Positions 9,659 to 23,301 of a DNA stretch of 64,000 bases are shown piece by piece (positions within the stretch are counted from its first letter, which is position 1; the number at the start of each line of letters is the position of its first letter). The DNA lies in contig NZ_SNWP01000010.1 in assembly GCF_004361915.1 (NCBI RefSeq), forward strand, positions 692,501-756,500, given 5' to 3'. A model generated the notes under the pieces. The model saw only the letters and a list, made by a program, of their open reading frames with translations. It ran no database searches and was not told the origin of the DNA. The DNA comes from Sediminibacterium goheungense (lineage in GTDB: Bacteria; Bacteroidota; Bacteroidia; Chitinophagales; Chitinophagaceae). Made by a program: the position numbers and the translations under genes.

Positions 9659-9733
9659 GCCCGGTTCGTCTATCGGCTAGGACATCTCCCTTTCACGGAG
9701 GAAAGACGGGTTCGATTCCCGTACCGGGTACCA
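9659..9733 (+). tRNA. tRNA-Glu (anticodon TTC), CCA encoded
   Basis: The acceptor arm GCCCGGT (9659-9665) pairs with ACCGGGT (9723-9729), including a first-position G-T pair. The D arm is GTCT/GGAC, and the anticodon loop CTTTCAC gives anticodon TTC. The T arm contains GGTTCGATTCC. Discriminator A is followed by an encoded CCA (9731-9733). The 3' half is also read on the other strand as the end of a recombinase fragment, which fits an integration site. Confidence 0.95.
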
Positions 9734-10244
9734 TACCGGAAACACTCAAATCTTTGAAGCGTTTCCGGTTTTTTATTTCCCTGAAACCCTCTCCCAGCTT
9801 GACTATCAGCCGAACTGCCTCATTCACTTTTGTGGTTCGATGTTGCTTGCCGTCAAAAACGAACTTTTCTGGAAACATCGAACCAATTATCTGCCTTTTC
9901 ATCGCTGAATCACCTTGTATGTATAGTGTTTTGATTCGAGAAAGGTTGCTTATCCCTTTATCGACCATTTCATTATAATTTTTTTCATCGAGAGCAGTAG
10001 TTGCCAGCTTGGCTTCCAGTTCTGTAATCAGCCGCACAGACTCTTCTTTTAGTTCCCGAAAATCCTGGTGGTCCATTTTTTCATCAACGACAAGAACCCG
10101 CCCATTTTTCAGGCGATTATTGACAACCTCAATTTGATTGAGAATTTTATTTCGCTCGCTTCGGACATCCTTGGTAAGTTCATTCAGGCGCTCTTTAAGC
10201 AGCACCGCATATGCCTGGTTATAGGAAAATGGAATGGTGTGTTT
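9693..10244 (-). pseudogene. C-terminal remnant of a serine site-specific recombinase
   Basis: An open frame without a usable native start covers the last ~180 residues of a Bacteroidota-type serine recombinase. It has a coiled-coil segment (KERLNELTKDVRSERNKIL) and the family's typical end (FPEKFVFDGKQHRTTKVNEA, then VRLIVKLGEGF). The catalytic N-terminal domain is missing. The frame is open up to the left end of an IS3 element at 10245, which evidently cut the gene. Its C-terminus (PGTGIEPVFPP) is encoded by the complement of the tRNA-Glu 3' half and stops in the anticodon region. This indicates an element that integrated into this tRNA. Non-functional. Confidence 0.82.
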
Positions 10245-10324
10245 TGACCTCCCCCCAGAAAACTGGACATTATTACACTAGAAAAAGGGGTAATTATTCA
10301 TAATTTAAACCATGAATTTTTACC

Positions 10325-10590
10325 ATGAAGAAGTCAAAATTTACTGAAGCGCAAATTGTGTTTGCGATTAAGCAATCTGATCAGGGTTTAAAACGTAGGA
10401 AATCTGTCGTAAGATGGGCATCATCGAAGCGACATTTTATAACTGGAAGAAGAAGTATGGCGGGTTAGGTGTGTCTGAGCTGCGCGAGATGCGCCAGCTC
10501 AAGGAGGGGAATGCCCGGCTAAAACAGATGGTTGCTGATTTAAGCCTGGACAGGCAAATGCTTCAAGATGTGATCAAAAAAAAGCTTTAA
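10325..10590 (+). pseudogene. IS3 orfA (HTH transposase subunit), frameshifted
   Basis: It starts MKKSKFTEAQIVFAIKQSDQ and ends KQMVADLSLDRQMLQDVI plus KKKL, the usual helix-turn-helix and leucine-zipper protein of IS3 elements. One base is missing near 10392-10397, after GGTTTAAAA, so the frame is lost between the first 23 residues and the rest (EICRKMGIIEATFYNW). The A8G run at 10576-10584 is the usual -1 slippage site to orfB. Confidence 0.85.
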
Positions 10591-11463
10591 GGCCAGCCCA
10601 GAAGAAGGAGCTGGCCGGCTATTTAATGGGGCAGTACAAGGTGGTGGTAAGACGTGCTTGCCGGGTACTGGAGCTTCGCCATTCGGTATTTTACTACCGC
10701 CATCATCGAAGAGAAGACAGGCCCTTGAGGAAACGCATTAAGGAAATGGCAGCTAAGCGCATCCGTTATGGGATGTGGCGGATCTACACGCTACTGCGCA
10801 GGGAAGGCTGGACGGATAACCGCAAGCTTGTGCATCGTATCTACAAAGAAGAAGGTCTGAACCTTTGTAGTAAACGCCCACGTCGAAGCAAGTCTGGTGC
10901 TCACCGGCTGGAGAGACTACAGGAGGTTGGATTGTACGAGTGTTGGTCAATGGATTTTGTAAGCGATGCCTTGTTTGACGGCCGTAAGTTCCGGGCCTTA
11001 ACTATAGTGGATAATTGTAGTCGGGAATGTCGGGCAATCGCTCCGGGGTGGTGATGTGGTAAACGCTCTGGAGGAATTAAAACAGTATCGGGGATTAATA
11101 CCCAAACGGATACAAACAGATAATGGCAGTGAGTTTATATCAAAAGAAATGGACCGCTGGGCATACTACAACCAAGTAACGATGGACTAATCACGTCCGG
11201 GCAAACCTACGGACAATCCCTTTGTGGAATCTTTTAACGGAAGCTTCAGGGATGAATGCCTGAATGCGAACTGGTTCTTATCTTTTGATGATGCGGCGCA
11301 AAAGATTGAAGCCTGGAGAACAGAATACAATCATTACCGGCCGCACAGTTCTTTAGGCGACCAGACACCAATATCATTCGTAAGCAAATGCCTGCAGATG
11401 TTGGAAGAAAGTCAAACCCTGCCGGGGGCTCCTGATGCAGATAAAACGATTTTTTGCAACTGA
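10588..11463 (+). pseudogene. IS3 orfB (DDE integrase), disrupted
   Basis: The rve/DDE transposase is recognisable in pieces: an HTH_21-type segment (YYRHHRREDRPLRKRIKEMA), first Asp in CWSMDFVSDA, second Asp in TDNGSEF, and Glu in NPFVESFNGSFRDECL. The frame breaks after RAIAPGW (11054) by a small deletion. A stop codon interrupts VTMD*SRPGKPTDNP near 11190. The C-terminal piece runs to 11463. It cannot make an active transposase. Confidence 0.86.
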
Positions 11464-11831: not shown

Positions 11832-12484
11832 CTATGACCTGTCACTTATATTATGTTCCATAGCATACACAATCAGACCAGACTTACCCTTTACGCCAAG
11901 CTTCCTGGTTAACTTTTTCCGGTAATCATCCATTGATTTAGGACTTAAAAACATCTGTTCTGCAATTTCCTGATAGGTTAGCTGTTGACAAAGTAACTTC
12001 AGAAATTTTAGTTCATTGTCTGTTAAATCAACCTTGGGCTGGATTTGCAAAACATTCTTTTGCAGCCCGGATATTATTTTTTTTGAAATGGAATCGGGAA
12101 GATAACTTCCGGTATTCCACAATGTCTGGATAGCATCATGCAATCTTTCGGGTTCTGCATTCTTAGTAATATATCCATGAGCTCCGGCCTGAATCATTTT
12201 CAGAATGGTAGTTTCATCACTATACATGGAAAGCACCAGAATCTTTACTTGAGGATAATGGCTATTTAACCACTGTGCAACTTGTATACCATCCTTCCCT
12301 CCCATATTTACATCTAGGATGAGAATGTCAGGTATCAGATTTTTTTAAGGGCCGTGATCACCTCCTCACCATTATCAGCCTCAAAAGCAATATGGTAATT
12401 GCCTAAAAGCTGAATCAGGCGTACCAGTCCCTTTCTTAGCATGGTATGATCATCAGCAAAAGCAAGGCTAAGTTTTCGCTGCAT
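11832..12484 (-). pseudogene. NarL/LuxR-type response regulator, frameshifted
   Basis: Reading on the minus strand from ATG at 12484 gives MQRKLSLAFADDHTMLRKGL and continues to ALKKI, then a stop. In the next frame the protein resumes as LIPDILILDVNMGGKDG and runs to the end. One base is missing in an A7 run (12341-12347); eight A would restore one 217-residue regulator. It would have the acidic pair DD at 11-12, phospho-acceptor Asp about residue 58, and a C-terminal LuxR helix-turn-helix (LTYQEIAEQMFLSPKSMDDY). It follows the histidine kinase by six bases, so it is the kinase's natural partner. A GTG/ATG start at 12305 would leave only a truncated receiver. Confidence 0.85.
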
Positions 12485-12490
12485 AAAATC

Positions 12491-13306
12491 CTATTTACTA
12501 TTAAACTGATCCACTGGAATAAACACCTTTACAAGTGTTCCCATTCCGGGTTCACTTTGAATCAGAAAACTACCATTGAAAATGGATACTCTTTTTTTCA
12601 TATTGCCAAACCCTATTCCATGCTTTATGCCTTCCTGGCTCAGGTCAAATCCTTTACCATTATCCCTGATGGACATTTCCACTCCGTTGTCAATACGAAT
12701 TAACTTAAAATCTACTTCTGACGCACCTGAGTATTTCAACATATTTTTAATCGCCTCCTGATAAATCCGGAATAACAGTAACTGAATTTCCGGTTTCAGG
12801 TCCAATTTCAGGGTAATGGATTCATCTATTTCCAGGGTACTGTTTACAACATTTTTCCGTTTGAGATTCTCCAGTTCATATACAATGGCATTAAAAACCC
12901 CTATCTCCACAATTCGATCCGGATTCATACTCCTGGACAAATAAGTAAGGTCTTCCATCGATTTTTGCAATAGTTCCCGACTTTCCTGAACCAACTGTAA
13001 AGCTGATGGATCCTGACCAATTTGACTGATAAGAATAGTAAGGTTTACGTTGGTAAGGAGTAATGTTTGGCCAACATTGTCATGAATTTCCATGGATATG
13101 TCCCTCTGGACTGTTTCCTGAATTTCCATGCGCGTGCTGAGTATCTCATTTTCCATGGTAACTTTCAAAAGCTCCAGTTCCTTTTTTTGCTGCATCTTTC
13201 TTTTTTGGTATGAAAAAGTCAGCAAGACGACAAAGCCAATTAAAAAGCTGATTATGAGACTAATAGCTAGGAATTGGGTATAGATTTCCGGGTATTGATC
13301 TGGCAT
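12491..13306 (-). CDS. sensor histidine kinase, NarX/DesK (HisKA_3) type
   Basis: A 271-residue kinase with one N-terminal transmembrane helix (residues about 11-32), a coiled coil, a HisKA_3 dimerisation box with phospho-His at about residue 75 (SMEIHDNVGQ), and a HATPase domain with N box (EAIKNMLKYSGA) and G box (DNGKGFD, GIGFGNM). It has no extracellular sensing domain, so sensing may depend on the membrane protein encoded just upstream, whose gene overlaps by 40 bases. Its partner is the frameshifted LuxR regulator downstream, or the intact one at 14692-15342. Confidence 0.9.
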   Translation of the reverse strand: MPDQYPEIYTQFLAISLIISFLIGFVVLLTFSYQKRKMQQKKELELLKVTMENEILSTRMEIQETVQRDISMEIHDNVGQTLLLTNVNLTILISQIGQDPSALQLVQESRELLQKSMEDLTYLSRSMNPDRIVEIGVFNAIVYELENLKRKNVVNSTLEIDESITLKLDLKPEIQLLLFRIYQEAIKNMLKYSGASEVDFKLIRIDNGVEMSIRDNGKGFDLSQEGIKHGIGFGNMKKRVSIFNGSFLIQSEPGMGTLVKVFIPVDQFNSK

Positions 13307-13908
13307 ACGAATGCAATAATGAGAATAATATAGAAAACACCATTTACAAAAAGGATGATACTTCTGGTCAAACGAATCATTTCTTTTGGCAATGTTGCGA
13401 TAAAGTTAAACACACCGGCTACAGATAAAGACGTAGCATAAAAAACCAATAAGCCGGTCACTATCCAAAAGGAAGGTTCTTTTAAAAGGTTATCTACCTG
13501 TGCTTCTTTAAAAGTGTGATAATAATAATAAATACAGACATAAACGATGATGAGAACACTAAATGTGTAGCTATAGGTGTGAAAGGTTTTCAATCCATGT
13601 ACCAAAAATATATCTATAAGACAACAGCAGGCTATTAGGACCATCAGTCTTAAAACAAAAGTTTTCCGTAGAATAAGATATAAAGTATAGGCAAAATAAC
13701 AAAGCTCAATTACTGAATAGAGATTGACTAACCACAGATTATTGATAGAACGTACCCTGTAATACCGGGCTACCAATTCAACACTTAGGGAAAGCAGGAG
13801 CAGTAAAGGTATAGTCCTGAGATAAGGAAAAGAGGGTCGCGTCTTTATAGAAAAGCCTGTAATTACTGCGACTAAAAGAATAATCCAATCGATTCTGATA
13901 TCATTCAT
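13267..13908 (-). CDS. multi-pass membrane protein upstream of kinase
   Basis: 213 residues with about six or seven hydrophobic helices (near 8-20, 30-48, 62-82, 88-105, 115-132, 148-168, 182-205) and short loops. No known catalytic motif. The 3' end overlaps the histidine kinase gene by 40 bases, implying coupled translation and a shared role, perhaps as the membrane sensor for a kinase that lacks one. Family not recognised; function inferred only from position. Confidence 0.75.
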   Translation of the reverse strand: MNDIRIDWIILLVAVITGFSIKTRPSFPYLRTIPLLLLLSLSVELVARYYRVRSINNLWLVNLYSVIELCYFAYTLYLILRKTFVLRLMVLIACCCLIDIFLVHGLKTFHTYSYTFSVLIIVYVCIYYYYHTFKEAQVDNLLKEPSFWIVTGLLVFYATSLSVAGVFNFIATLPKEMIRLTRSIILFVNGVFYIILIIAFVCQINTRKSIPNS

Positions 13909-13964
13909 AACCTAATAACTCCTGTAATATACAGGAGTTATTAACGGGTTCAGGATTTTATTGA

Positions 13965-14459
13965 CTAAATAATTTCTATCCCTCCATTCTCATCTGTCAT
14001 GGTAAATCCAATGGGATCCAATTCCATTGACAAATCGATGTCAAAATCAGGAGGCATTCCTCCGCAATAAGGCGGGCAATTTTCCCCTTTGTTAAACGCC
14101 AATAGTTCCTTCTTTCCATTTTTATTGATAAACAAGGCTTTATTTCTGGCACCCGGATGGTTTTCCGATTTTCTTGTTGCAACCATTACAATCGTTTGAC
14201 GTCCTGCCAGTTCGCTCAGAGGGTAATCAGCTGGATAAACGCCAAAAAACATTTTAACGCCATCAGCTCCATGTTGTTTGATAAGAGAAATAAAATGTTC
14301 CAGTTGTTCCATTCCAAACCAGGTACTCAGGGAATCGGGTTTATCCAGTTTTTGGCTATTGGGTTTCCATCTTTCCAACTTGTAGGTGCTAACCAGATCA
14401 TGGACATGCTTTGTTGAAACCAGACTGCCATTGCTTTCAATAATAGATTTTGTGGTCAT
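13965..14459 (-). CDS. protein of unknown function in two-component cluster
   Basis: 164 residues, no signal peptide or membrane segment. It has a central region FFGVYPADYPLSELAGRQ and a Gly/Pro/Cys-rich part (GENCPPYCGG). It resembles small conserved Bacteroidota proteins of unknown role. ATG at 14459 is taken as the start; a TTG at 14483 lies inside a perfect hairpin directly upstream. The next genes downstream on the strand are the membrane protein and kinase. A direct repeat of AATCCCTGTTTT lies about 140 bases upstream and may be a regulator site. Confidence 0.7.
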   Translation of the reverse strand: MTTKSIIESNGSLVSTKHVHDLVSTYKLERWKPNSQKLDKPDSLSTWFGMEQLEHFISLIKQHGADGVKMFFGVYPADYPLSELAGRQTIVMVATRKSENHPGARNKALFINKNGKKELLAFNKGENCPPYCGGMPPDFDIDLSMELDPIGFTMTDENGGIEII

Positions 14460-14490
14460 AAAAAGAAGTTTGATGAACACCAAACTTCTT
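14460..14490 (-). promoter_or_regulatory. terminator-like hairpin abutting a start codon
   Basis: On the minus strand AAGAAGTTTG (14490-14481) pairs perfectly with CAAACTTCTT (14472-14463) across an 8-base loop. A T-rich stretch then leads straight into ATG at 14459. It has the form of an intrinsic terminator or attenuator in the leader, and could also mask the start codon. Confidence 0.65.
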
Positions 14491-14600
14491 GGCCTATTCG
14501 ACCTTAAAAATCACATAAATACCTATTTATCAATTAATTATTAATTAACTATAATTATAATATAATATACGTCAATTGCTTATCTATTAATGACAAAATT

Positions 14601-14639
14601 AATCCCTGTTTTTGGACAAAAAAATCCCTGTTTTCAGGG
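14601..14639. promoter_or_regulatory. direct repeat AATCCCTGTTTT, 22-base period
   Basis: AATCCCTGTTTT occurs at 14601-14612 and 14623-14634, two helical turns apart. The second copy continues into CAGGG to form CCCTG-TTTT-CAGGG (14626-14639). It lies upstream of the unknown gene that heads the kinase cluster and downstream of the LuxR regulator gene. Probable binding site; the protein is unknown. Confidence 0.5.
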
Positions 14640-14691
14640 TTATTGAACCCTTGAAATTTTAAACATTTCTCCTACTAATTGGAAACAAAAA

Positions 14692-15342
14692 TTAGAACAG
14701 TTGAACAATGCCATTTTCAATGGCATAAAAAGTGAGGGCAGCCCGGTTGTTAATTCCCAGTTTTTGGAAAACACTATCCCGGTAATTTTCCAGGGTTTTT
14801 GGCTGAACAGATAGCTTAATGGAAATTTCTTTATAGGTTAGGTTTGTACAGGCAAGTTTTATAAACTGGATTTCCTTTTCAGTTAGCAATTGTTTGCCCT
14901 GAAATCCCTTTTGATTGCGCATTTTTATTAAGTCGCTATATTTCTTTTTTATATTTATGGGGATATAAAACCCGAAATCAACTACGGATTTAATGGCACT
15001 TTCCAGTATGGATGGATCAGCTGATTTTGGCAGGTAACCACAGGCACCCTGATAAATAGCGTTTAAAATAACATCTTCCGACTGGTATAAGGAGAAAATA
15101 AAGATTTTTACAGATGGATACAAAGTATGGATCTCTCTGATAACATCAAATCCACTCATCTTAGGCATAGATAGATCAAGAATAATGACATCAGGCAAAC
15201 TGCCGCTTTCCAATTGGCTTAATAGCTCCTTTCCATTTGAAGCTTCTACTATAACCTGGAATTGTTTATTTATTTCAAGAAGTGTCCTTATTCCTCTTCT
15301 GGTAATTGCATGGTCATCCACAAGGCCAATTTTTACCTTCAT
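14692..15342 (-). CDS. NarL/LuxR-type response regulator, intact
   Basis: A 216-residue regulator. Receiver domain 1-120 carries the acidic pair at D9-D10, phospho-acceptor D56 (DVIILDLSMP) and the conserved switch residues around FIFSLYQ. A C-terminal LuxR (GerE) helix-turn-helix follows (LTEKEIQFIKLACTNLTYKE). No kinase gene is immediately adjacent; the nearest is at 12491 in the same orientation. It follows the decayed peptide/exporter genes and may have regulated them, which is an inference from position only. Paralogous to the frameshifted regulator at 11832. Confidence 0.92.
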   Translation of the reverse strand: MKVKIGLVDDHAITRRGIRTLLEINKQFQVIVEASNGKELLSQLESGSLPDVIILDLSMPKMSGFDVIREIHTLYPSVKIFIFSLYQSEDVILNAIYQGACGYLPKSADPSILESAIKSVVDFGFYIPINIKKKYSDLIKMRNQKGFQGKQLLTEKEIQFIKLACTNLTYKEISIKLSVQPKTLENYRDSVFQKLGINNRAALTFYAIENGIVQLF

Positions 15343-15524
15343 AAATTTTCAATAAATTTAAATGGTATAATTAACCAAATATATAAATCATTTAATGATA
15401 AAGATACCTTAAGGGGAAACCACAAATTATCTGAAAATATTAATAGATTTTGATTAGACCCTAACGCAAGAAAATATTCACTGCGAGAAAACTAAGCATT
15501 GAGGAATTATAAGTCGTATGTTGA

Positions 15525-15632
15525 CTAAAGTGAAGTAATACCTAATGCCTTTTTTATATTATAATAAAACCGATCTAAAATAGTGTACTCTTTAGTAATG
15601 ATTAAAGCATCACCATGTAAGCCATTGTAAGC
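15525..15632 (-). pseudogene. C-terminal scrap of probable HlyD-type secretion protein
   Basis: An open frame of 35 codons from the IS end to a TAG stop at 15525. It contains GLHGDALIITKEYTILDRF followed by YYNIKKALG. This resembles the usual C-terminus of Bacteroidota HlyD membrane-fusion proteins (a Gly-Met/Leu-x-Gly-x-Ala-x-Ile-Ile-Thr motif, then a hydrophobic tail). The rest of the gene is absent; an IS3-family element sits where it should be. Expected neighbour of a C39 peptidase/ABC exporter. Assignment is by motif only. Confidence 0.5.
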
Positions 15633-15654
15633 TCCCCGTAATTTAGTGCCACGG

Positions 15655-16523
15655 TTAGTTAGAGTTTTCTAAGGTAATATTTTTCTGTTTTTGCTTCCAT
15701 TTGTCTGCATATCTTATCGGTGATAAATAGCCCAATGATTTATGCGGTCTCTCGGTATTGTAATCCATTCTCCACTCTTCTGTTTGCTCTCTGACTTCCG
15801 ATAAACGATAGAACAGGTAGGCATTTAATACCTCTCTTCCGATGCTTCCATTTTTCCTTTCGATGTATGCATTTTGGGTGGGTTTCCCCGGTTGAATAAA
15901 CTGTATCGTTATCTGCCTGCGTTCATCGCTACACCATTCTTCTAGCTTATGGCTGATAAATTCAGGGCCATTGTCGCAACGAATATTGGCTGGTTTACCT
16001 CTTTGTGTAATCAGTTTTTCCAGCACTCTGATTACCCTAAGAGATGGCAATGACGTATCTACTTCAATAGCCAAAGATTCCCTATTAAAATCGTCCATTA
16101 CATTGAACAAGCGGAACCTTCTTCCATCTACCAGTGTATCGCTCATAAAATCAATACTCCACACCTGGTTAGGCGCTACAGGAAGGGTCAATGGCTGTTT
16201 TATCCTCTCAGGAAGCCTCTTTTTGGCTCTGCGACGGATATTGAGTTTCATGTCCGTATATACTCTGTAGATCCTTTTATGATTCCACCAGTGACCCTTA
16301 TTCCAAAGCCGGTAACAACATTGCCGGAACCCAATAGCAACATGCTTTGTAGTTAGTGCAGTCAGGGCGTCCTGAAGCTCACTGTCATCCTTCGGTTTTG
16401 ATTGATACTGGTAAGTACTGCGGGATATGCCTACCAGTTCACATGCCTTACGGTTACTTAACTGCTCTTCTTCTACCAGATGATGGGCAGTCTCCCGTTT
16501 CGCTTCAGGCGTTAAAACTTTTT
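15655..16523 (-). CDS. IS3-family transposase orfB (DDE integrase)
   Basis: Produced as an OrfAB fusion after -1 frameshifting at AAAAAAG (16524-16518). Continuing in the shifted frame gives KVLTPEAKRETAHHLVEEEQ without interruption into the HTH_21 region and the rve core. The catalytic triad is visible: Asp in WSIDFMSDT, Asp in RCDNGPEF, Glu in QNAYIERKNG. The integrase ends normally (RPHKSLGYLSPIRYA and about 15 more residues). The first ATG in this frame (16251) would omit the N-terminal region, so frameshift expression is the better model. Appears functional. Confidence 0.9.
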
Positions 16524-16787
16524 TGCAATCAGGTTTTTCATGGCTCTATTCTCAAGACTCAGTTCAGCTACAATCTTTTTGTACTCACTAATCTCGGCTT
16601 CCATCTGCTTCATCTTTACAACATCGCTCACTTCCATGCCCCCATACTTCGCCTTCCAGTTGTAAAACGTTGCTTCACTGATGCCCATCTCCCGGGCAAT
16701 GTCTTTAACAGCAATTCCTGATTCCTGTTTCTTCATGGCAGATACTATCTGCGTTTCGGTAAATCTTCCTTTTTTCATGTCTTTCAA
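16512..16787 (-). CDS. IS3-family transposase orfA
   Basis: A 91-residue (88 if begun at the second Met) DNA-binding subunit: helix-turn-helix (RFTETQIVSAMKKQESGIAV, then GISEATFYNW) followed by a leucine-zipper-like helix ending KNLIAKKF. The A6G slippery run near the 3' end feeds orfB. It is intact, unlike the decayed copy at 10325. Confidence 0.92.
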   Translation of the reverse strand: MKDMKKGRFTETQIVSAMKKQESGIAVKDIAREMGISEATFYNWKAKYGGMEVSDVVKMKQMEAEISEYKKIVAELSLENRAMKNLIAKKF

Positions 16788-16852
16788 AGTTTAAAGTTAA
16801 CAAGCTTTTTACCGCTAACTCTAACCTTCAATGGACAACTTTTAGGGGAAGC

Positions 16853-17041
16853 CTACACTCGGAACCCAATATCTTCAGCAGCATCACTTAATCCTAAAAG
16901 AGAGACACCATCTCGCCTTAATCGAGTCTTAGCATGCAATTGCGCAGGAGTTATAGACTGACCATAATAATTCGCAACCATTCGCAGGCATGTTGGACCA
17001 CAGTCCATTGTGTTCATCTGTTTATAAAAATCAAATTTCAT
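16853..17041 (-). pseudogene. N-terminus of C39 peptidase/ABC peptide exporter
   Basis: 62 residues of a bacteriocin-type exporter: the C39 peptidase domain start with its catalytic cysteine in MNTMDCGPTCLRMVANYYGQ, then GVSLLGLSDAAEDIGFRV. Full-length members are about 700 residues, with peptidase, six membrane helices and ABC ATPase. Here the frame meets a stop just before the IS3 element, and neither the catalytic His/Asp nor the ABC part is present. Its ATG overlaps the stop of the TlpA-like gene (ATGA), showing that it belonged to this operon. C39 domains cleave leaders after Gly-Gly, matching the peptide gene at 18510-18730. Confidence 0.87.
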
Positions 17042-18450
17042 AACTTCTTTGCTAAATCAATTTGGGATAGTAGCTCATTTAATCTAACTGGCTCTGCAGC
17101 TTGTGAAAAGGCGATATCACCTCTTTCTGTAACAATCAAATATCGAGGTATACTAACAATATGAAGTAAATTAGATAGTTTTTCAATTTCGTTAGCGTCT
17201 TTAAGGATATAATTTTTCGAACTAGTAAGTCTTCCTTTCTTCAAATAATTTTTCCACTGATTATAATCTTGGTCGAGTGATATAGTAATGAGCTCAGTTT
17301 CAGATCTGCCTGATTTAATATTGTGCAATAAAGGCTGAGCTTTAATGCAAGGCACGCACCAAGTAGCCCACAAATCGACAAATTTGATATTTGAATTTGA
17401 TTGAAATATTTCTCCAATGGTAAATACGGCACCATTTGTGTTTTTTAATTCTATATTATATATTGAATACAGGTTTAATTCAGAATATTTCTTTGTGAAC
17501 TTTAGTTGAATTTCTTTTGTTTTAGGGTCTTTATAAATATTTAAGATGTCATTCTTAATACTGTCTGTTACCCTATCAAAAATGTTAACTCTACTTAGAT
17601 AATGCATTCTTACTATCCCGGCTAATGCAATTTCAAGATTCTTTCCCTTTAAAAGCTTTTTGGCATTTGCAGAAGCTTCTTTAAAATACTCAATCGCAGA
17701 GAGTGAAAGACTACCCTTGTGAAAGTAATACTCAAAATAAGCACCAATAAAATCAAAATAATATTGAGACTCGCATAGAATAGAATCATTAATATTACTT
17801 GCTAGCATTGCATGTTCGACTAATTGCTCTATGCTATCTGTAATTGGAATTTTAGAATCTCTTAATTGACAAAGGAAGTCTGATAGAAAATAATAAGGCA
17901 TTTCTTTAATAATAAACTCCCTAAATGATTTACTTATTGGATATTTCCTTGCGAAGGAAGGAAGCCATTCTTCTTTAATCCATTTATAATATTGATAAAC
18001 TTCTTTGGCAGACAGCAGTTTATCCTTATAGGTTACTGTTTTCAATCTAGGTGAATTCTGTATTAACTTTTTTAATCTATTATAGTACACATAATTACCT
18101 GGATAATCTGACAAAGCATCTAATGAATCATTATAATCTTCTTTATTACCTACAAAATAAAAATTAACTATTGCCCTATCTCCCTGCTCAATAAAGACAT
18201 AATTATAAAATAGTGAATAAAGTCCACTTTGCTTTTGATCAAATCTGCTATTATAATTTGAATCTTTAATTTTTACCTTAATATTATTGTATTCTGTATT
18301 TAGGAAATCGGTGGTATAAAAAGGAACTGTATTATAATCATAGTTATGCATAGTACCAGAGATACTAGTCTTCTTATCACACCCCAATAGCGTAAAAAGA
18401 GTACAAACTAATAAACATTGAGCTATAAAAATTTTCTTCAAATATGCCAT
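17038..18450 (-). CDS. TlpA-like thioredoxin-fold lipoprotein
   Basis: A 470-residue exported protein: lipoprotein signal (LFTLLGC, lipid Cys about residue 24), a long helical region (about 90-330) of unknown fold, and a C-terminal TlpA/redoxin domain with the active site WATWCVPC at about residue 365. It would act as a periplasmic thiol-disulfide enzyme. Encoded between a cysteine-rich peptide and its exporter, it probably served disulfide formation or isomerisation of that peptide (inference). The sequence is AT-rich compared with flanking core genes. The frame is intact, unlike its neighbours. Its stop overlaps the exporter start. Confidence 0.88.
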   Translation of the reverse strand: MAYLKKIFIAQCLLVCTLFTLLGCDKKTSISGTMHNYDYNTVPFYTTDFLNTEYNNIKVKIKDSNYNSRFDQKQSGLYSLFYNYVFIEQGDRAIVNFYFVGNKEDYNDSLDALSDYPGNYVYYNRLKKLIQNSPRLKTVTYKDKLLSAKEVYQYYKWIKEEWLPSFARKYPISKSFREFIIKEMPYYFLSDFLCQLRDSKIPITDSIEQLVEHAMLASNINDSILCESQYYFDFIGAYFEYYFHKGSLSLSAIEYFKEASANAKKLLKGKNLEIALAGIVRMHYLSRVNIFDRVTDSIKNDILNIYKDPKTKEIQLKFTKKYSELNLYSIYNIELKNTNGAVFTIGEIFQSNSNIKFVDLWATWCVPCIKAQPLLHNIKSGRSETELITISLDQDYNQWKNYLKKGRLTSSKNYILKDANEIEKLSNLLHIVSIPRYLIVTERGDIAFSQAAEPVRLNELLSQIDLAKKL

Positions 18451-18509
18451 CTTATAAAATTAAAAGATTAGGAGAAATATAATATTCCTCCCAATCCTTA
18501 TTTTAGGAA

Positions 18510-18730
18510 CTAAGGCCAGTAAGTAGAATTATTACTTCTTACACAATACACTGCACAATTGGTTGCATTAGCAGCACATCCACCCCAACCAGCATTTCCA
18601 CACCATCCACTACCCCAGGTGCAATGCGCTACTCGATCGTTCCCGCAAACGCCTCCGCCGGCTCCTGTGGACCTTCAGGATCATTACCTCCTTTTAAGTT
18701 CCTAAGTTGTTCTCTGCTTAAATTTTTCAT
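18510..18730 (-). pseudogene. Cys-rich GG-leader peptide precursor, frameshifted
   Basis: From ATG at 18730 the minus strand reads MKNLSREQLRNLKGG, a classic Bacteroidota double-glycine leader, then NDPEG. In the next frame an uninterrupted core follows: GGGVCGNDRVAHCTWGSGWC, then GNAGWGGCAANATNCAVYC and ten more residues to a stop at 18510. Adding one base near 18665-18675 restores a ~73-residue precursor with six cysteines in a Gly/Trp/Asn-rich core. As it stands the leader frame ends after 33 codons. Next to a C39 exporter, a VKOR-thioredoxin protein and a TlpA-like protein, this is probably the product of the cluster: a secreted disulfide-bonded peptide, perhaps a bacteriocin. Activity unknown. 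Confidence 0.75.
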
Positions 18731-18803
18731 TTTTTTTAGTTTAAAATTTTGGTAATATTTAATTAGGCAATTACCATTAGCCTATGTTGGCTGGCCAGTG
18801 CAA

Positions 18804-20183
18804 CTACACTAAAGATGTTTTCCTTATATCATTTAGTGAAAGATTTTCAATTAACATTGGAATAATTATATATAAATCGTCCGAACTGTAATATTCTGAA
18901 TACAAAGCTCCATTAATCAATATAGTTGGAGTTTTATCAATTTTATGCATCTCACACCATTCAAAAACTTTAATTAATTCTGGTTTAAATTCCTCTGCAG
19001 CCATTTCAAAACTTTGCTCACTGAGATATTTCTCTCGAAATAAATTTATATTCTTTAACTGATACCACTCATCTAGTATTTCTTTCTTCTCAAAAGAACT
19101 ATGATTGGCTAACGAAAGAAGATTAATTGCAGAAATAAAATTTTCATTATCTCCAGAAAATGAATCGACAATGAAAAATATTTCGAAAGAAATTTCTTCA
19201 TTATAAACTTTAAGTAGAGACTTTAAAGTTTCATGAGTCACAGCACAAGGCACACAGGTAGGCCCACTTATTATCTGTAGTCGAATTTTTGCATTAGGAT
19301 TGCCTAATTGAATTGCAGCATTAGTATCAGGCGTACCAAAAAATGGCTGTTGCATCATAACACCATGGAATACTACAGGATTTTTTTTGAATTTTTCATA
19401 TTCGACTTCCAACCATTCATACTTGAAATAATATTTTATAAAACTCCTGATTGAAAGCCAAATAGCAGCTATGAGAAGAAACAAAATGGAAAAATTACCG
19501 TAGATTTTTAAAAAATTATACTGGCTTATATTTATAGTTTCTAATTCGAATAATAGAAAAAAAGCCTGTATCAATAGAGATGTGGAAATCATTAAACAAA
19601 TTTTACACCATGCCTTAATCACCTTCCATTGTATAAAAATGGTAATGGGTAATAGAAGAAGTGAGCTTGCTATAATTGGAGTAAGTAAAAAGAATTTCGC
19701 ATCAGGGTTAATGCCTGTATAAAACAGGAAAGCTACACTTGTTGAAATGAAATAAATTAATGCTATTTCAGCCAAATCTATATAGTCATAAAAAGGAAAG
19801 ACTTTAGAATTGAATACTTGAGCACAATTTTGATTATCCCTCGTATTACAAAATTTTTGAATAAAGTTAGTAGGGTATCCCTTCTTTGCTAAAATGAGGG
19901 ATATCGAAAAAAATATTCCTAAAAAATTCAAGGATATAATAAAAAGGCTGGAAAAATTTAGAGATTTATTTTGATAGAAAAAAAGTATCAAAGAGACTAA
20001 GGCAATAATTATAATAAATGAACTCTTATTGAGGATAGTTTTATTATTACTAAGCTGTTTAATTTTAGAGAATAATTGCTCTTCTTTTATAGAAAGAAAA
20101 ATACCTTTCCAGTTATGAAAAATTAGTCCGGAATTCAGAAACTCTTCCTTAGAATTTACCACAAAAAAAATCATAGCTTTCAT
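18804..20183 (-). CDS. VKOR-thioredoxin fusion membrane protein
   Basis: 459 residues: a short N-terminal remnant (FFVVNSKEEFLNSG), several transmembrane helices (about 55-240) forming a vitamin K epoxide reductase domain with paired cysteines (CNTRDNQNCAQVF) and the CxxC of AWCKICLM, then a DsbA/thioredoxin-like domain with GPTCVPC at about residue 310. Such proteins re-oxidise thioredoxin-fold partners through quinones and drive disulfide formation outside the cytoplasm. It is upstream of the six-cysteine peptide on the same strand. The N-terminal C39-like domain lies in the same frame at 20217-20426 but is separated by two stops and compensating indels, so this entry may be a truncated product. 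Confidence 0.85.
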   Translation of the reverse strand: MKAMIFFVVNSKEEFLNSGLIFHNWKGIFLSIKEEQLFSKIKQLSNNKTILNKSSFIIIIALVSLILFFYQNKSLNFSSLFIISLNFLGIFFSISLILAKKGYPTNFIQKFCNTRDNQNCAQVFNSKVFPFYDYIDLAEIALIYFISTSVAFLFYTGINPDAKFFLLTPIIASSLLLLPITIFIQWKVIKAWCKICLMISTSLLIQAFFLLFELETINISQYNFLKIYGNFSILFLLIAAIWLSIRSFIKYYFKYEWLEVEYEKFKKNPVVFHGVMMQQPFFGTPDTNAAIQLGNPNAKIRLQIISGPTCVPCAVTHETLKSLLKVYNEEISFEIFFIVDSFSGDNENFISAINLLSLANHSSFEKKEILDEWYQLKNINLFREKYLSEQSFEMAAEEFKPELIKVFEWCEMHKIDKTPTILINGALYSEYYSSDDLYIIIPMLIENLSLNDIRKTSLV

Positions 20184-20426
20184 CTAAATCAGGACTTTGA
20201 TACAATGATGAAAATACTAGTACAGGAAAGGAAATGGTATATTATTAAGATCATTTTTATCTCCAACTACAGCAGTGTACTCCATATCATGTTCCACTAA
20301 AAAGTCAGTCAAAGACACTAAACTTGGATAATTTGGGTGTGACAATAATTTCTTCCTTAAATATTTCTCATTGATAGTAATATTTAATTGCTTTAAATAT
20401 TGCTTGGTTGCTAAGAGAATAGACAT
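20163..20426 (-). pseudogene. broken C39-like N-terminal domain of the VKOR protein
   Basis: A 69-codon frame from 20426 reads MSILLATKQYLKQLNITINE and continues through LLSHPNYPSLVSLTDFLVEH to IPFPFL. This is the non-catalytic C39-like domain normally fused in front of Bacteroidota VKOR proteins. It stops at 20217. In the shifted frame VFSSLYQSPDLDESYDFF follows, and removing one T from the T8 run (20170-20163) returns to FFVVNSKEEF of the VKOR gene. So one lost base near 20222 and one gained base at T8 explain the break. The net frame is unchanged but two stops now interrupt it. Confidence 0.72.
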
Positions 20427-20472
20427 GATTATTGAATTACAAGCAATTTAATGTCCCCAACTCGGTTAAAAT

Positions 20473-20488
20473 AGGGGTAAAAACCCCT
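20473..20488. promoter_or_regulatory. palindrome AGGGGTAAAAACCCCT, copy 2
   Basis: Identical 16-mer to 11787-11802, here about 46 bases upstream of the start of the VKOR-cluster gene (20426, minus), a usual place for an operator. Flanked by T and A, which extends the palindrome to 18 bases. The rest of 20427-20574 shows no gene. Confidence 0.55.
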
Positions 20489-20702: not shown

Positions 20703-21104
20703 ATGAAAAGATATGTATTAACCAGCCTGCTTATCAGCAGCCTTCTCTTCTCCGGTTGCGAGAAAACAGATGAACAATTACTAGAAAAATGTGTACAGGT
20801 AAAAATACTTGATGAGCTTTGCGGCACTGCCGTAATGCAAATACTCGATGAAGACTATTTTAAATTTGGTGTAGATGGCTATCAGAAAGATGGAGTTACC
20901 TACGACCATGTTTTTTCTGCAGAATTAAGCTGTGCCGATATCACCAAATTCCAAACCCTTACCGCTTCCTTGAAAGGACTCGTAGTATACGTGAAGATGA
21001 TGAAGCAGATCCAATACGACCCTGCCTGTACAAAATGCGCAGCCGTTGTACCTAATGCACCTGCCAAATGGATACCAATAAAGTTTTCAGAAAAATGTGA
21101 TTAA
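20703..21104 (+). CDS. small cysteine-rich lipoprotein, paralog 1
   Basis: 133 residues beginning with a lipoprotein signal (SLLISSLLFSGCEK, lipid Cys about residue 19). The mature part has eight further cysteines, with motifs VKILDELCGTAVMQI, DGVTYDHVFSAEL and DPACTKCAAVVPNAP. It is closely related to the next gene (same order of motifs). Likely an outer-membrane-anchored protein stabilised by disulfides; family not recognised. It lies just outside the IS-bounded accessory region, so a link with the disulfide genes is only a suggestion. Confidence 0.82.
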   Translation: MKRYVLTSLLISSLLFSGCEKTDEQLLEKCVQVKILDELCGTAVMQILDEDYFKFGVDGYQKDGVTYDHVFSAELSCADITKFQTLTASLKGLVVYVKMMKQIQYDPACTKCAAVVPNAPAKWIPIKFSEKCD

Positions 21105-21207
21105 AATATGTTGGCAGATATTTCTACCAAAAAATACTTCACTTGATTTTTCCATTACAGATTCAACGATTTATTTCAATTCTATCCCATACACCAAACT
21201 GATAAAT

Positions 21208-21618
21208 ATGAAAAAAAGTTTTTCTCCTTTGCTGATAGTATGCAGTCTGGTATTTATTGTAGCCTGTGAAAAAAATGAAACAACTCAATCAAAAGATTGT
21301 GTTCCGGTAAAAATATTGGATGTAGTTTGTAATAGTGCTGTTTTACAAATCACTGATCCTGCCTATTATCATTTAGGTGTTAATGGATACGAAAAAAATG
21401 GTATCACCTACGACCATGTTTTTACTACCATTCTCCCTTGTAAACTTCCGTCCAATAATAACTCCAGACCTAATATGGGCGTTGCAGACAAACCGTTCTA
21501 TGTTCAGATACTGGATCAACCGGAAGCAAGCGACCCTAATTGCGGATCCTGCGCCGCCATTGTTAGCAACGCCCCAAATAAATTATGGTACGTTTCTTTT
21601 TCAGAAAAATGTAATTAA
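21208..21618 (+). CDS. small cysteine-rich lipoprotein, paralog 2
   Basis: 136 residues; start chosen at 21208 (MKKSFSPLLIVCSLVFIVAC) because it gives a lipoprotein signal, whereas the frame open from 21097 adds 37 unlikely residues. The mature part mirrors paralog 1: VKILDVVCNSAVLQI, GITYDHVF, DPNCGSCAAIVSNAP, and a final FSEKC. A tandem duplication is likely. The stop codon lies inside one arm of a hairpin shared with the convergent DoxX-like gene. Confidence 0.82.
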   Translation: MKKSFSPLLIVCSLVFIVACEKNETTQSKDCVPVKILDVVCNSAVLQITDPAYYHLGVNGYEKNGITYDHVFTTILPCKLPSNNNSRPNMGVADKPFYVQILDQPEASDPNCGSCAAIVSNAPNKLWYVSFSEKCN

Positions 21619-22137: not shown

Positions 22138-23301
22138 TCACCAGGGGCCTACTACGGCAGTACCTTCATCAATGGTAACCGGATAAGCCCCGGGCAATAC
22201 CCCATAGGTTTCCAGATAAGATTCAGATATCCTGTCTACAAAATCTGCTACTGCTGCTTTTTTGACAAGATTGAGCGTACAACCACCAAAACCGCCACCC
22301 ATCATTCTGGCGCCAATTACATTTTTATATCCAATCGCAAAATTCACCAGAAAATCGAGTTCCGGACAACTAACATTGTACATTTCACTCAACCCTGTAT
22401 GGGTACTAAACATTTTTTTTCCAAAAGAAAGCAAATCCCCTTTTTTTAGATCTTCACAGGCTTCTTTTACACGCGCTATTTCTTCTACCACATACAGGCA
22501 CCGCCTGAATATATTTTCATCCAATGAATGTAGTTCCTGCTGTAATAATGCGGGTGTAGCATCTCTCAGACTCGTGATTTCCGGATGAAACCTTTGCAGG
22601 TGTGCTACACCTGCTTCGCAATCTAATCTGCGGAGATTGTACTCAGAATCGGCAAGCGAGTGTTTTACACGACTATTGATCAGTAACAGATCATATTCCT
22701 CCGACTCAAAAGGAAAATAATGATGGTCCAGCGAGCGACAGTCTAACTCAATCACCTGATTGGCTTTACCAAACATGCTGGCAAACTGATCCATGATACC
22801 ACAACGAACACCAATAAAATCATTCTCAGCCTGCTGTGCCATTTTCACCATGGTCATCCTGTCTAGCTTATACCCAAATAACTCATTCAAGGCAAAAATG
22901 GTAGCACATTCTACCGCTGCTGATGATGAAAGGCCGGCACCTATAGGGATATCTCCCCGTACAACAGCATTAAAGCCTCCACAAGGGTAGCCAGCTTTCT
23001 GTAATACATCTACGATGGCCAATACATAATTGGCCCAGCTTTGCAATGAAACTGAAACAGCGTCTATATTGCCTGTATAAAACTCCTTGTAATCAACCGA
23101 AAAAAGATGAATCTCCTGATCGTTTCTCGCACCTATTGATACATATACTGCATTATCGATAGAAGCCGGTAATACAAACCCATCATTATAATCGGTATGC
23201 TCCCCGATCAGGTTGATTCTGCCTGGCGAACGTACAATAAACTGTGGCTCTCCGAAATGTTCACGGTAATAAATACCTGCATCCTGTATTAATAAATTCA
23301 T
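22138..23301 (-). CDS. galK: galactokinase
   Basis: GHMP-family kinase that phosphorylates galactose at C1, first step of the Leloir pathway. At 387 residues it matches the family. Visible motifs: signature GRINLIGEHTDYNDGFVLP, the ATP-binding GAGLSSSAAVE loop, and the C-terminal MMGGGFGGCTLNLV. Its ATG overlaps the stop of the upstream beta-CASP gene (ATGA), so the two are co-translated; no other gal gene is nearby. Confidence 0.96.
   Translation of the reverse strand: MNLLIQDAGIYYREHFGEPQFIVRSPGRINLIGEHTDYNDGFVLPASIDNAVYVSIGARNDQEIHLFSVDYKEFYTGNIDAVSVSLQSWANYVLAIVDVLQKAGYPCGGFNAVVRGDIPIGAGLSSSAAVECATIFALNELFGYKLDRMTMVKMAQQAENDFIGVRCGIMDQFASMFGKANQVIELDCRSLDHHYFPFESEEYDLLLINSRVKHSLADSEYNLRRLDCEAGVAHLQRFHPEITSLRDATPALLQQELHSLDENIFRRCLYVVEEIARVKEACEDLKKGDLLSFGKKMFSTHTGLSEMYNVSCPELDFLVNFAIGYKNVIGARMMGGGFGGCTLNLVKKAAVADFVDRISESYLETYGVLPGAYPVTIDEGTAVVGPW

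What the first reader, a model, noticed from the sequence alone, without database searches (positions are those of the whole stretch)
11832..20488. A decaying, possibly undescribed disulfide-peptide system with two-component genes
The segment combines a six-cysteine GG peptide, a C39-like/VKOR/thioredoxin oxidase, a TlpA-like lipoprotein, a C39 exporter and probable HlyD tail, plus kinase, membrane protein, unknown protein and two LuxR regulators, all on one strand. Dedicated quinone-linked disulfide machinery in a peptide export cluster suggests a pathway in which cysteines are oxidised during or after export. The placement of a kinase without sensory domain beside a membrane protein raises the possibility that the peptide was a signal as well as a bacteriocin.
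Basis: inference. Interest (0 to 1): 0.75.

Follow-up and report, generated by a model that had tools for sequence, protein, structure and literature searches.

The report
Broken export cluster for disulfide-rich peptides
A bacterium carries the wreck of a gene cluster that, in related Bacteroidota, appears to make and export small peptides rich in cysteine pairs, and its membrane enzyme may make the disulfide bonds on the inner side of the membrane, before export, which is not where bacteria usually make them.

Summary
On the minus strand at 15525-20426 lie a degenerate-C39/VKOR/thioredoxin oxidase, a GG-leader six-cysteine peptide, a TlpA-like protein, a C39 exporter start and an HlyD tail. 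Frame breaks in oxidase and peptide, and an IS3 element with a deletion, inactivate it. Relatives of the oxidase occur in 30 of 195 sampled family genomes (own included) and on plasmids of five Bacteroidota genera; 14 of 61 loci examined show the window's full gene order. Of 40 GG peptides near the oxidase in family loci, 39 have an even cysteine number, mostly six or eight; in 21 exporter loci without the oxidase none of 8 GG peptides has six. The kinase, membrane protein, unknown protein and LuxR gene are a separate module (same order in 9 of 9 relatives chosen), not beside the oxidase in 10 other genomes with both; their place here looks coincidental. New inference: in 52 of 52 fusions aligned, lysine and arginine crowd the side bearing the redox cysteines; 11 of 12 VKORs without the C39-like domain lean the other way. 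The oxidase probably faces the cytoplasm and acts before export. No description was found in the open-access searches made. New variant of a known kind.

The parts
20217..20426 (-). N-terminal, catalytically degenerate C39-like domain of the oxidase (69 codons, now in its own frame)
   Evidence: BLAST to N-termini of single-frame fusions in relatives, up to 49% identity; catalytic residues lost in the family
18804..20183 (-). Rest of the oxidase: extra helix TM0, VKOR core, DsbA-like Thioredoxin_4 domain; six redox cysteines kept
   Evidence: Pfam VKOR and Thioredoxin_4 over cut-off; six cysteine columns invariant in 52 of 52 aligned fusions including the window
18510..18730 (-). Precursor peptide gene: 15-residue leader ending in GG, then a frame break, core frame with six cysteines
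   Evidence: searches (frames; start at 18730), end read; NCBIfam leader_Chryseo 18.9 bits, under its 23.5 cut-off
17038..18450 (-). TlpA-like protein, 470 aa, thioredoxin domain with WCVPC; lipoprotein signal judged by eye
   Evidence: Pfam Thioredoxin_8 42.7 bits; relatives directly downstream of peptide genes
16858..17041 (-). First ~61 codons of the C39 peptidase-containing ABC exporter
   Evidence: Pfam Peptidase_C39 56.2 bits; 38-61% identity over ~60 aa to exporters in relatives
15626..16857 (-). IS3-family element; most of the exporter and of HlyD are missing around it; only full copy found in this assembly
   Evidence: orfA/orfB frames, ends, one full copy
15525..15625 (-). Last 32 codons and stop of the HlyD-type adaptor
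   Evidence: translation, BLAST to HlyD C-termini in six relatives
14692..15342 (-). LuxR-type response regulator RR2, intact; link to either module unproven
   Evidence: Pfam Response_reg and GerE; proteins similar to it by BLAST lie divergently beside the oxidase in 3 of 36 family loci
13965..14465 (-). Unknown protein of the separate two-component module (neighbour, not part of the peptide system)
   Evidence: 49 of 191 family genomes; no Pfam/NCBIfam match
13267..13908 (-). Membrane protein of the separate module (neighbour)
   Evidence: 110 of 191 family genomes; order in 9 of 9 chosen loci
12491..13306 (-). HisKA_3/HATPase_c histidine kinase of the separate module (neighbour)
11832..12484 (-). 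LuxR-type response regulator RR1, split by a frame break (neighbour)

Best explanation
The segment is the inactivated remnant of a Bacteroidota cluster for disulfide-rich GG-leader peptides (most likely bacteriocins). In intact clusters a precursor with a GG leader and a variable core of usually six or eight cysteines is recognised by the oxidase. The oxidase's dead C39-like domain holds the leader, and its DsbA-like domain puts disulfides into the core, passing electrons through the VKOR cysteines to quinone. Charge bias says these parts face the cytoplasm, so oxidation precedes export. The C39 exporter then cuts the leader and exports the peptide with HlyD and TolC. A TlpA-fold secreted partner, often right behind a peptide gene, corrects, keeps or neutralises disulfides on the outer side. 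Shown by sequence: gene set, order, lesions, peptide/oxidase association, even cysteine numbers, loss of C39 catalytic residues, charge bias. Inferred: leader binding, orientation, electron flow, disulfide formation, bacteriocin role, TlpA role.
For: Oxidase in 30 of 195 family genomes incl. own. Exporter within 9 kb in 45 of 61 fusion loci, HlyD in 39, TlpA-like in 36; 0/0/0 in 291,300 bp of control loci (the models were built from some of these loci). Full window order in 14 of 61. GG peptides with at least 2 Cys within 6 kb in 28 of 36 family loci after discarding two hits inside the oxidase gene; 39 of 40 even. 31 of 32 even in class and plasmid loci. 0 hits in 196,791 bp of control DNA. 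In 21 exporter loci without the oxidase, 8 GG peptides with 0, 0, 0, 0, 2, 2, 2 and 4 Cys. Catalytic C, H and Q in 0, 1 and 0 of 41 fusions; 19 of 19 exporters have each (C and Q by the way they were picked). K+R density higher on the active-site side in 52 of 52 fusions, 15.1 against 3.9 per 100 residues; automatic test: 26 of 28 family fusions (2 ties), 10 of 13 class fusions (1 against, 2 ties), and 11 of 12 VKORs without C39 the other way. The C39-to-first-helix stretch aligns to solved PCAT1/ComA-type exporters (best E 2.4e-6), whose C39 domain is cytoplasmic (known).
Against: No experiment. Positive-inside is a rule, not proof; the automatic test gave one class fusion (L152) the other way, four ties and no anchors for L064, and set some helices poorly; one VKOR without C39 (L200) broke the pattern. 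Helix TM0, which puts C39-like and thioredoxin domains on one side, rests on hydropathy. A DsbA-like domain in the reducing cytoplasm is unusual. Three of 41 fusions have a Cys near the lost catalytic position. 13 of 36 family loci show no exporter within reach, some at contig ends. Odd cysteine numbers occur: seven in L066 and L222, and, beyond the 6 kb limit, five in L218 and seven in L147. One peptide (L052) passes the cut-off of TIGR04149, named for radical-SAM-modified peptides. No immunity gene was recognised.
Confidence: 0.58

Rival explanations
1. Same system, but the oxidase has the usual VKOR orientation: cysteines and thioredoxin domain in the periplasm, disulfides made during or after export, as proposed for sublancin or bacteroidetocin maturation.
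For: Ordinary bacterial VKOR-thioredoxin proteins face the periplasm (known; solved relatives 4nv6/3kp9 matched); the TlpA-like partner looks like a lipoprotein and hence periplasmic; sublancin's oxidase BdbB acts in a comparable operon (passages of PMC6391423).
Against: Would put the K/R-rich flanks in the periplasm in 52 of 52 fusions; with TM0, the C39-like domain would then also be periplasmic, away from leaders that are cut off in the cytoplasm.
Confidence: 0.32
2. The peptide is a signal read by the neighbouring kinase, membrane protein and LuxR regulators, i.e. one quorum-sensing-like unit.
For: Proximity and common strand in the window; a kinase/LytTR pair stands directly upstream of the oxidase on one Emticicia plasmid and one gene further upstream on another; RR2-like proteins lie beside the oxidase in 3 of 36 family loci.
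Against: The window's unknown protein-membrane protein-kinase-regulator block is a separate module in 9 of 9 relatives chosen; of 49 genomes with the unknown protein 38 had no oxidase match, and in the 10 others besides the own the two are not neighbours (on different contigs in 7 of 10). The Emticicia pair is of another regulator family.
Confidence: 0.05
3. The frame breaks are assembly errors and the cluster is disrupted only by the IS element.
For: RR1's break sits at a run of seven T; no reads are available.
Against: By eye, genes in the rest of the 64 kb tile as long open frames, so breaks concentrate here. The IS-linked loss alone removes the exporter and HlyD.
Confidence: 0.15

Closest known systems
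Bacteroidetocins (class IIf bacteriocins of Bacteroidales), PMC6671954 (section 7 and passages seen)
   Same: GG leader of 15-16 residues, cysteines in pairs, order membrane protein - peptide - thiol oxidoreductase - C39 exporter; deletion of membrane protein or oxidoreductase gene attenuates activity; no immunity protein found
   Different: Peptides A and B have four Cys and 42-residue cores; the membrane protein is called unknown with five TM; HlyD, TolC and C39 do not occur as words in the main text. Whether that protein is a distant relative was not tested
Sublancin operon sunA-sunT-bdbA-sunS-bdbB (PMC6391423, passages)
   Same: Leader-cleaving exporter with dedicated thiol oxidoreductases; BdbB forms the two disulfides (its DsbB-like, quinone-linked nature and SunT's C39 domain are recalled)
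   Different: Gram-positive, no VKOR fusion, two disulfides plus an S-linked sugar, oxidation outside the cell (recalled)
VKOR-thioredoxin disulfide oxidases (PDB 3kp9, 4nv2, 4nv5, 4nv6; source Synechococcus recalled)
   Same: VKOR domain with two cysteine pairs and a fused thioredoxin-fold domain; matched by the fusion profile
   Different: No C39-like domain and no TM0 (recalled); the charge pattern of 11 of 12 other VKORs is opposite to the fusions
C39-like domains without protease activity, e.g. of HlyB (recalled, no call)
   Same: C39 fold with lost catalytic residues, thought to bind substrate
   Different: Here fused to an oxidase, not to a transporter
Cytoplasm-facing VKOR of the archaeon Aeropyrum pernix (recalled; the paper looked up was not held)
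   Same: Proposed inverted orientation
   Different: General cytoplasmic disulfide formation there, peptide-dedicated here

Membership tests
VKOR family (PF07884) | Pfam match over cut-off | tested here: met
   37.1 against 27.5 bits
VKOR family (PF07884) | two cysteine pairs (loop pair and CxxC) plus fused thioredoxin CxxC | tested here: met
   all six columns invariant in 52 of 52 aligned fusions including the window
VKOR family (PF07884) | active site facing the periplasm | tested here: inconclusive
   charge bias predicts the opposite; no experiment
Active C39 peptidase (oxidase N-terminus) | catalytic Cys, His and oxyanion Gln | tested here: not met
   0, 1 and 0 of 41 fusions against 19 of 19 exporters, these picked by a motif with Gln and Cys
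C39 peptidase-containing ABC exporter | C39 domain plus ABC transporter domains | tested here: not met
   window keeps ~61 codons of the C39 domain only; complete ones in relatives are 726-795 aa
GG-leader peptide (bacteriocin type) | short leader ending in GG followed by a core | tested here: met
   leader found, core now in another frame; NCBIfam leader_Chryseo 18.9 bits in the window (under cut-off 23.5), 28.0 in relative L036 (over cut-off)
Bacteroidetocin, class IIf | mature peptide of about 42 residues with four Cys | tested here: not met
   six Cys in the window core; 6, 8 or 10 in 37 of 40 family peptides
Bacteroidetocin, class IIf | killing of Bacteroidales | not testable with these tools
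   no assay
Bacteroidetocin, class IIf | homologous five-TM protein | not tested
   its sequence was not at hand
Quorum-sensing peptide with cognate two-component system | conserved linkage of peptide cluster and the window's kinase/regulator genes | tested here: not met
   module not beside the oxidase in 10 other genomes with both; order 9 of 9 without it

The most novel reading that the evidence does not exclude
A leader-guided, cytoplasm-facing VKOR: a dead C39-like domain docks the GG leader and the fused oxidase writes disulfides into the precursor before export, making disulfides an installed, RiPP-like modification rather than a product of the periplasm, across a Bacteroidota-wide family of hypervariable peptides (up to ten genes in one locus).
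Probability: 0.5. Interest if true: 0.82.

Novelty: new variant of a known kind. Interest (0 to 1): 0.62.

Why it matters
It links a large set of cysteine-rich, poorly annotated peptides to one marker gene, in a phylum where at least one genus (Bacteroides) is said to lack general disulfide machinery (PMC6671954, passage). If the oxidase faces the cytoplasm, it would be a dedicated route to disulfide-bonded peptides inside bacteria, useful for discovery and production, and a test case for membrane-protein inversion. In the eight plasmid records the fusion is mostly named 'vitamin K epoxide reductase family protein' and the small proteins mostly 'hypothetical' or not annotated; one is named 'bacteriocin'.

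Tried and rejected
Tried: (1) A genome-contig scan with the window oxidase found only four distant VKORs; matches are only 22-34% alike. (2) Search for a tRNA-Glu repeat that would mark the other end of an island: no exact shared stretch of 12 bases or more elsewhere in the window; island claim dropped. (3) Empty-site comparison in the genus: the flanking gene at 22138-23301 (galactokinase by eye) is only 47-54% alike in the full-length matches; synteny was not pursued. (4) phmmer against solved structures: nothing for the window protein, weak thioredoxin hits for L036. (5) Structure prediction not run: its rule admits only window sequences and loci of certain tools, and a single-sequence model would say nothing about orientation. 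(6) Literature: of ten searches, the four that joined VKOR with bacteriocin, double-glycine, peptidase or C39 terms returned no paper; the others listed none that by title or abstract start describes this cluster (two searches showed 12 of 639 and 15 of 45). Subscription papers and preprints are not held. Considered and rejected: signal system with the neighbouring kinase; active C39 protease in the oxidase.

Rows dropped before counts: of 40 places, the own one and two short G107 contigs were left out and two G059 pieces merged (36 loci). In one search, 28 of 36 family, 16 of 17 class and 7 of 8 plasmid fusions were aligned, plus the window; short or split ones were left out. For one search, of 30 fetched VKOR loci (L182-L211) two were skipped for length, 15 passed the script's filter and three of those (L192, L203, L211) were set aside as fusions.
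Full report
WHAT IS THERE. The window is stretch 692501-756500 of contig C1 of a 3.86 Mb genome in 18 contigs. Reading along the minus strand from 20426 to 15525 come a C39-like/VKOR/thioredoxin oxidase, a short GG-leader peptide gene, a 470-residue TlpA-like protein, the first ~61 codons of a C39 exporter, an IS3 element and the last 32 codons of an HlyD adaptor. RR2, the unknown protein, the membrane protein, the kinase and RR1 follow. The peptide's leader (15 residues to GG) and its core (six cysteines) lie in different frames, the oxidase is cut in two frames, RR1 in two frames, and the IS3 element separates exporter start and HlyD end with the rest of both genes missing. One full copy of the IS was found in the assembly. 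By eye the rest of the window tiles with long open frames, so the decay is local; reads that could exclude assembly error are not available. One VKOR match was found in the genome, and at least one further, intact C39 exporter locus without VKOR.

INTACT RELATIVES. The oxidase matches in 30 of 195 genomes of the family, own included, in 23 of 101 genera. I fetched 36 loci. In 29 of 36 the match is one open frame of 502-582 residues; the others are shorter, split or, for L071, not found by that BLAST, so the window's split is a lesion. A profile of 14 fusions gave 49 of 295 class genomes at E<=0.001, most of the weaker matches being to parts of the model; by my count 18, own included, have a strong match over most of the fusion, and 17 of these loci were fetched. 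Plasmids of Emticicia, Spirosoma, Hymenobacter, Aureibacter and Parabacteroides carry it too (8 records). Over 61 loci (36 family, 17 class, 8 plasmid) an exporter lies within 9 kb in 45, an HlyD in 39 and a TlpA-like protein in 36. The same models gave nothing in 291,300 bp of control loci, though those were chosen round another module and are mostly short, and the models were built from some of the family loci. The order oxidase-peptide-TlpA-exporter-HlyD on one strand occurs in 14 of 61 loci, and without an HlyD call in 5 more; other loci have other arrangements, some with the exporter divergent.

THE PEPTIDES. With a strict leader pattern, 29 of 36 family loci have a hit with at least two cysteines within 6 kb. 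Two hits (L046:473, L065:10407) lie inside the oxidase gene on the other strand and are taken as chance, leaving 28 loci and 40 peptides: 27 with six cysteines, 7 with eight, 3 with ten, one each with two, four and seven, i.e. 39 of 40 even. The same scan of 196,791 bp of control loci gave no hit. In class and plasmid loci, where only cores with two or more cysteines were scanned, 32 peptides were counted (18 with six, 7 with eight, 6 with four, 1 with seven) in 17 of 25 loci; in seven of the 25 the script's pattern missed the oxidase gene and their peptides were not counted. Beyond 6 kb two more odd ones were seen, five cysteines in L218 and seven in L147. As a specificity test, 21 exporter loci without the oxidase (20 from class genomes, one from the own) gave eight GG peptides, with 0, 0, 0, 0, 2, 2, 2 and 4 cysteines, and TlpA-like matches in 2 loci. 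Leaders are similar and cores are not; one locus (L218) has ten peptides, another (L041) five. Of 42 peptides with three or more cysteines (one of them the chance hit in L065), 20 are followed by a TlpA-motif protein within 1 kb on the same strand. Of seven other downstream proteins scanned, five are thioredoxin-fold over a Pfam cut-off, one is weak and one has no match. Known families cover the precursors poorly: of eight scanned, one passes NCBIfam leader_Chryseo ('bacteriocin-like protein') and one TIGR04149, a family named for radical-SAM-modified peptides; six pass none. Whether a radical-SAM gene is near that one (L052) was not checked.

THE OXIDASE. Of four intact relatives scanned, four pass the Pfam VKOR cut-off, three Thioredoxin_4 and two Peptidase_C39. 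The six cysteines of the three redox pairs are invariant in 52 of 52 aligned fusions, window included. The C39 part has lost catalysis: Cys, His and Gln are kept in 0, 1 and 0 of 41 fusions, against 19 of 19 exporters, whose Cys and Gln were part of the motif by which I picked them; three fusions have a Cys within four columns of the lost one. Hydropathy shows six membrane segments, one more (TM0) than the five of solved VKOR-thioredoxin proteins (the five are recalled), so the C39-like and thioredoxin domains lie on the same side. Lysine plus arginine are concentrated on that side: 15-24 against 0-3 residues in each of 29 sequences, and 15.1 against 3.9 per 100 residues overall, in the same direction in 52 of 52. 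An automatic version gave 26 of 28 family fusions (2 ties; L064 had no anchors) and 10 of 13 class fusions (L152 against, 2 ties; several helices were set poorly). Eleven of 12 VKORs without a C39 domain went the opposite way, L200 being the exception. By the positive-inside rule the fusion's active sites face the cytoplasm. The alignment of its C39-to-TM0 stretch with solved PCAT1- and ComA-type exporters points the same way, since their C39 domains are cytoplasmic (known), though matching hydrophobic helices adds little.

THE REGULATORS. The unknown protein is in 49 of 191 family genomes and the membrane protein in 110 of 191. In nine relatives fetched from the strong matches the order unknown protein-membrane protein-kinase-regulator is the same in 9 of 9, with no oxidase match in those stretches. 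Ten genomes besides the own have matches to both oxidase and unknown protein (G029, G052, G059, G061, G084, G102, G114, G138, G143, G161; G114 weak). None are neighbours: in seven they are on different contigs, in G102 and G114 over a megabase apart, and in G161 the strong match is on another contig with a weak one about 35 kb away. The module is therefore taken as independent. Regulators of other kinds do stand near some intact clusters: a kinase/LytTR pair directly upstream on one Emticicia plasmid and one gene further away on the other, and RR2-like proteins beside the oxidase in L041, L042 and L068.

HOW IT MOST LIKELY WORKS. Shown: gene content, order, association, parity of cysteines, active-site conservation, loss of C39 catalysis, charge bias. 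Inferred: the dead C39-like domain binds the GG leader; the thioredoxin domain oxidises the core; VKOR returns electrons to quinone; all on the cytoplasmic side, before the exporter removes the leader and passes the peptide through HlyD/TolC. The TlpA-fold partner would act outside as isomerase, reductase or immunity protein. Bacteriocin activity is the likely role, by analogy with bacteroidetocins and because of the variable cores; nothing here tests it. In the window the system cannot work as such, since exporter and adaptor are gone.

KNOWN OR NEW. Bacteroidetocins show the same logic and a parallel gene order (membrane protein, peptide, thiol oxidoreductase, C39 exporter), and deleting the accessory genes attenuates activity (PMC6671954; section 7 read, passages). 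The sublancin operon pairs a leader-cleaving exporter with a dedicated oxidase (PMC6391423, passages). A word search of the VKOR-phylogeny paper PMC4555120 found none of 'Bacteroid', 'peptidase', 'fusion' or 'fused', and in two surveys of RiPP clusters 'VKOR' and 'vitamin' do not occur (PMC8939145, PMC10352776). The searches of the open-access library are listed under Tried and rejected; none turned up this cluster. I rate it a new variant of a known kind, with a potentially new maturation mechanism.

Noticed in passing
window 11832-14465 and relatives L230-L238: Four-gene module unknown protein-membrane protein-kinase-LuxR regulator, same order in 9 of 9 chosen relatives; the first two have no Pfam or NCBIfam match. 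In the window it has an extra regulator (RR2) upstream.
   Followed up: partly
L032 and L033 (contigs of candidate-phyla MAGs): Stand-alone VKORs have the same charge pattern as the fusions, K/R on the active-site side (2 of 2), so cytoplasm-facing VKORs may be wider spread.
   Followed up: no
L145 (Spirosoma oryzicola plasmid) and L149 (Parabacteroides distasonis plasmid): The fusion stands with glycosyltransferases, in L149 also with a LanC-like gene: possible glycosylated or lanthionine variants of the peptides.
   Followed up: no
L144 18047-19536 (Emticicia oligotrophica pEMTOL01): Anti-phage genes kwaA and kwaB directly follow the TolC gene of an intact cluster.
   Followed up: no
L218 (G481:C3:83500-103000): Ten GG-leader peptide genes with similar leaders and unlike cores around one oxidase and exporter; cysteine numbers 4 to 8, one of them five.
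   Followed up: partly
window 9659-11463: tRNA-Glu overlapped on the opposite strand by a recombinase-like open frame of 170 aa (identity by eye, not searched), next to a broken second IS3-like element (10325-11463): signs of an old integration; no matching repeat was found.
   Followed up: partly
L229 6352-10890 (G000:C4): A second, intact HlyD/C39 exporter pair in the same genome without VKOR; the only looser GG candidate in the stretch has a long hydrophobic leader and a one-cysteine core.
   Followed up: partly
window 20703-21618: Two tandem small secreted-looking proteins (133 and 173 aa frames), alike by eye and with conserved cysteines, on the plus strand beside the cluster.
   Followed up: no
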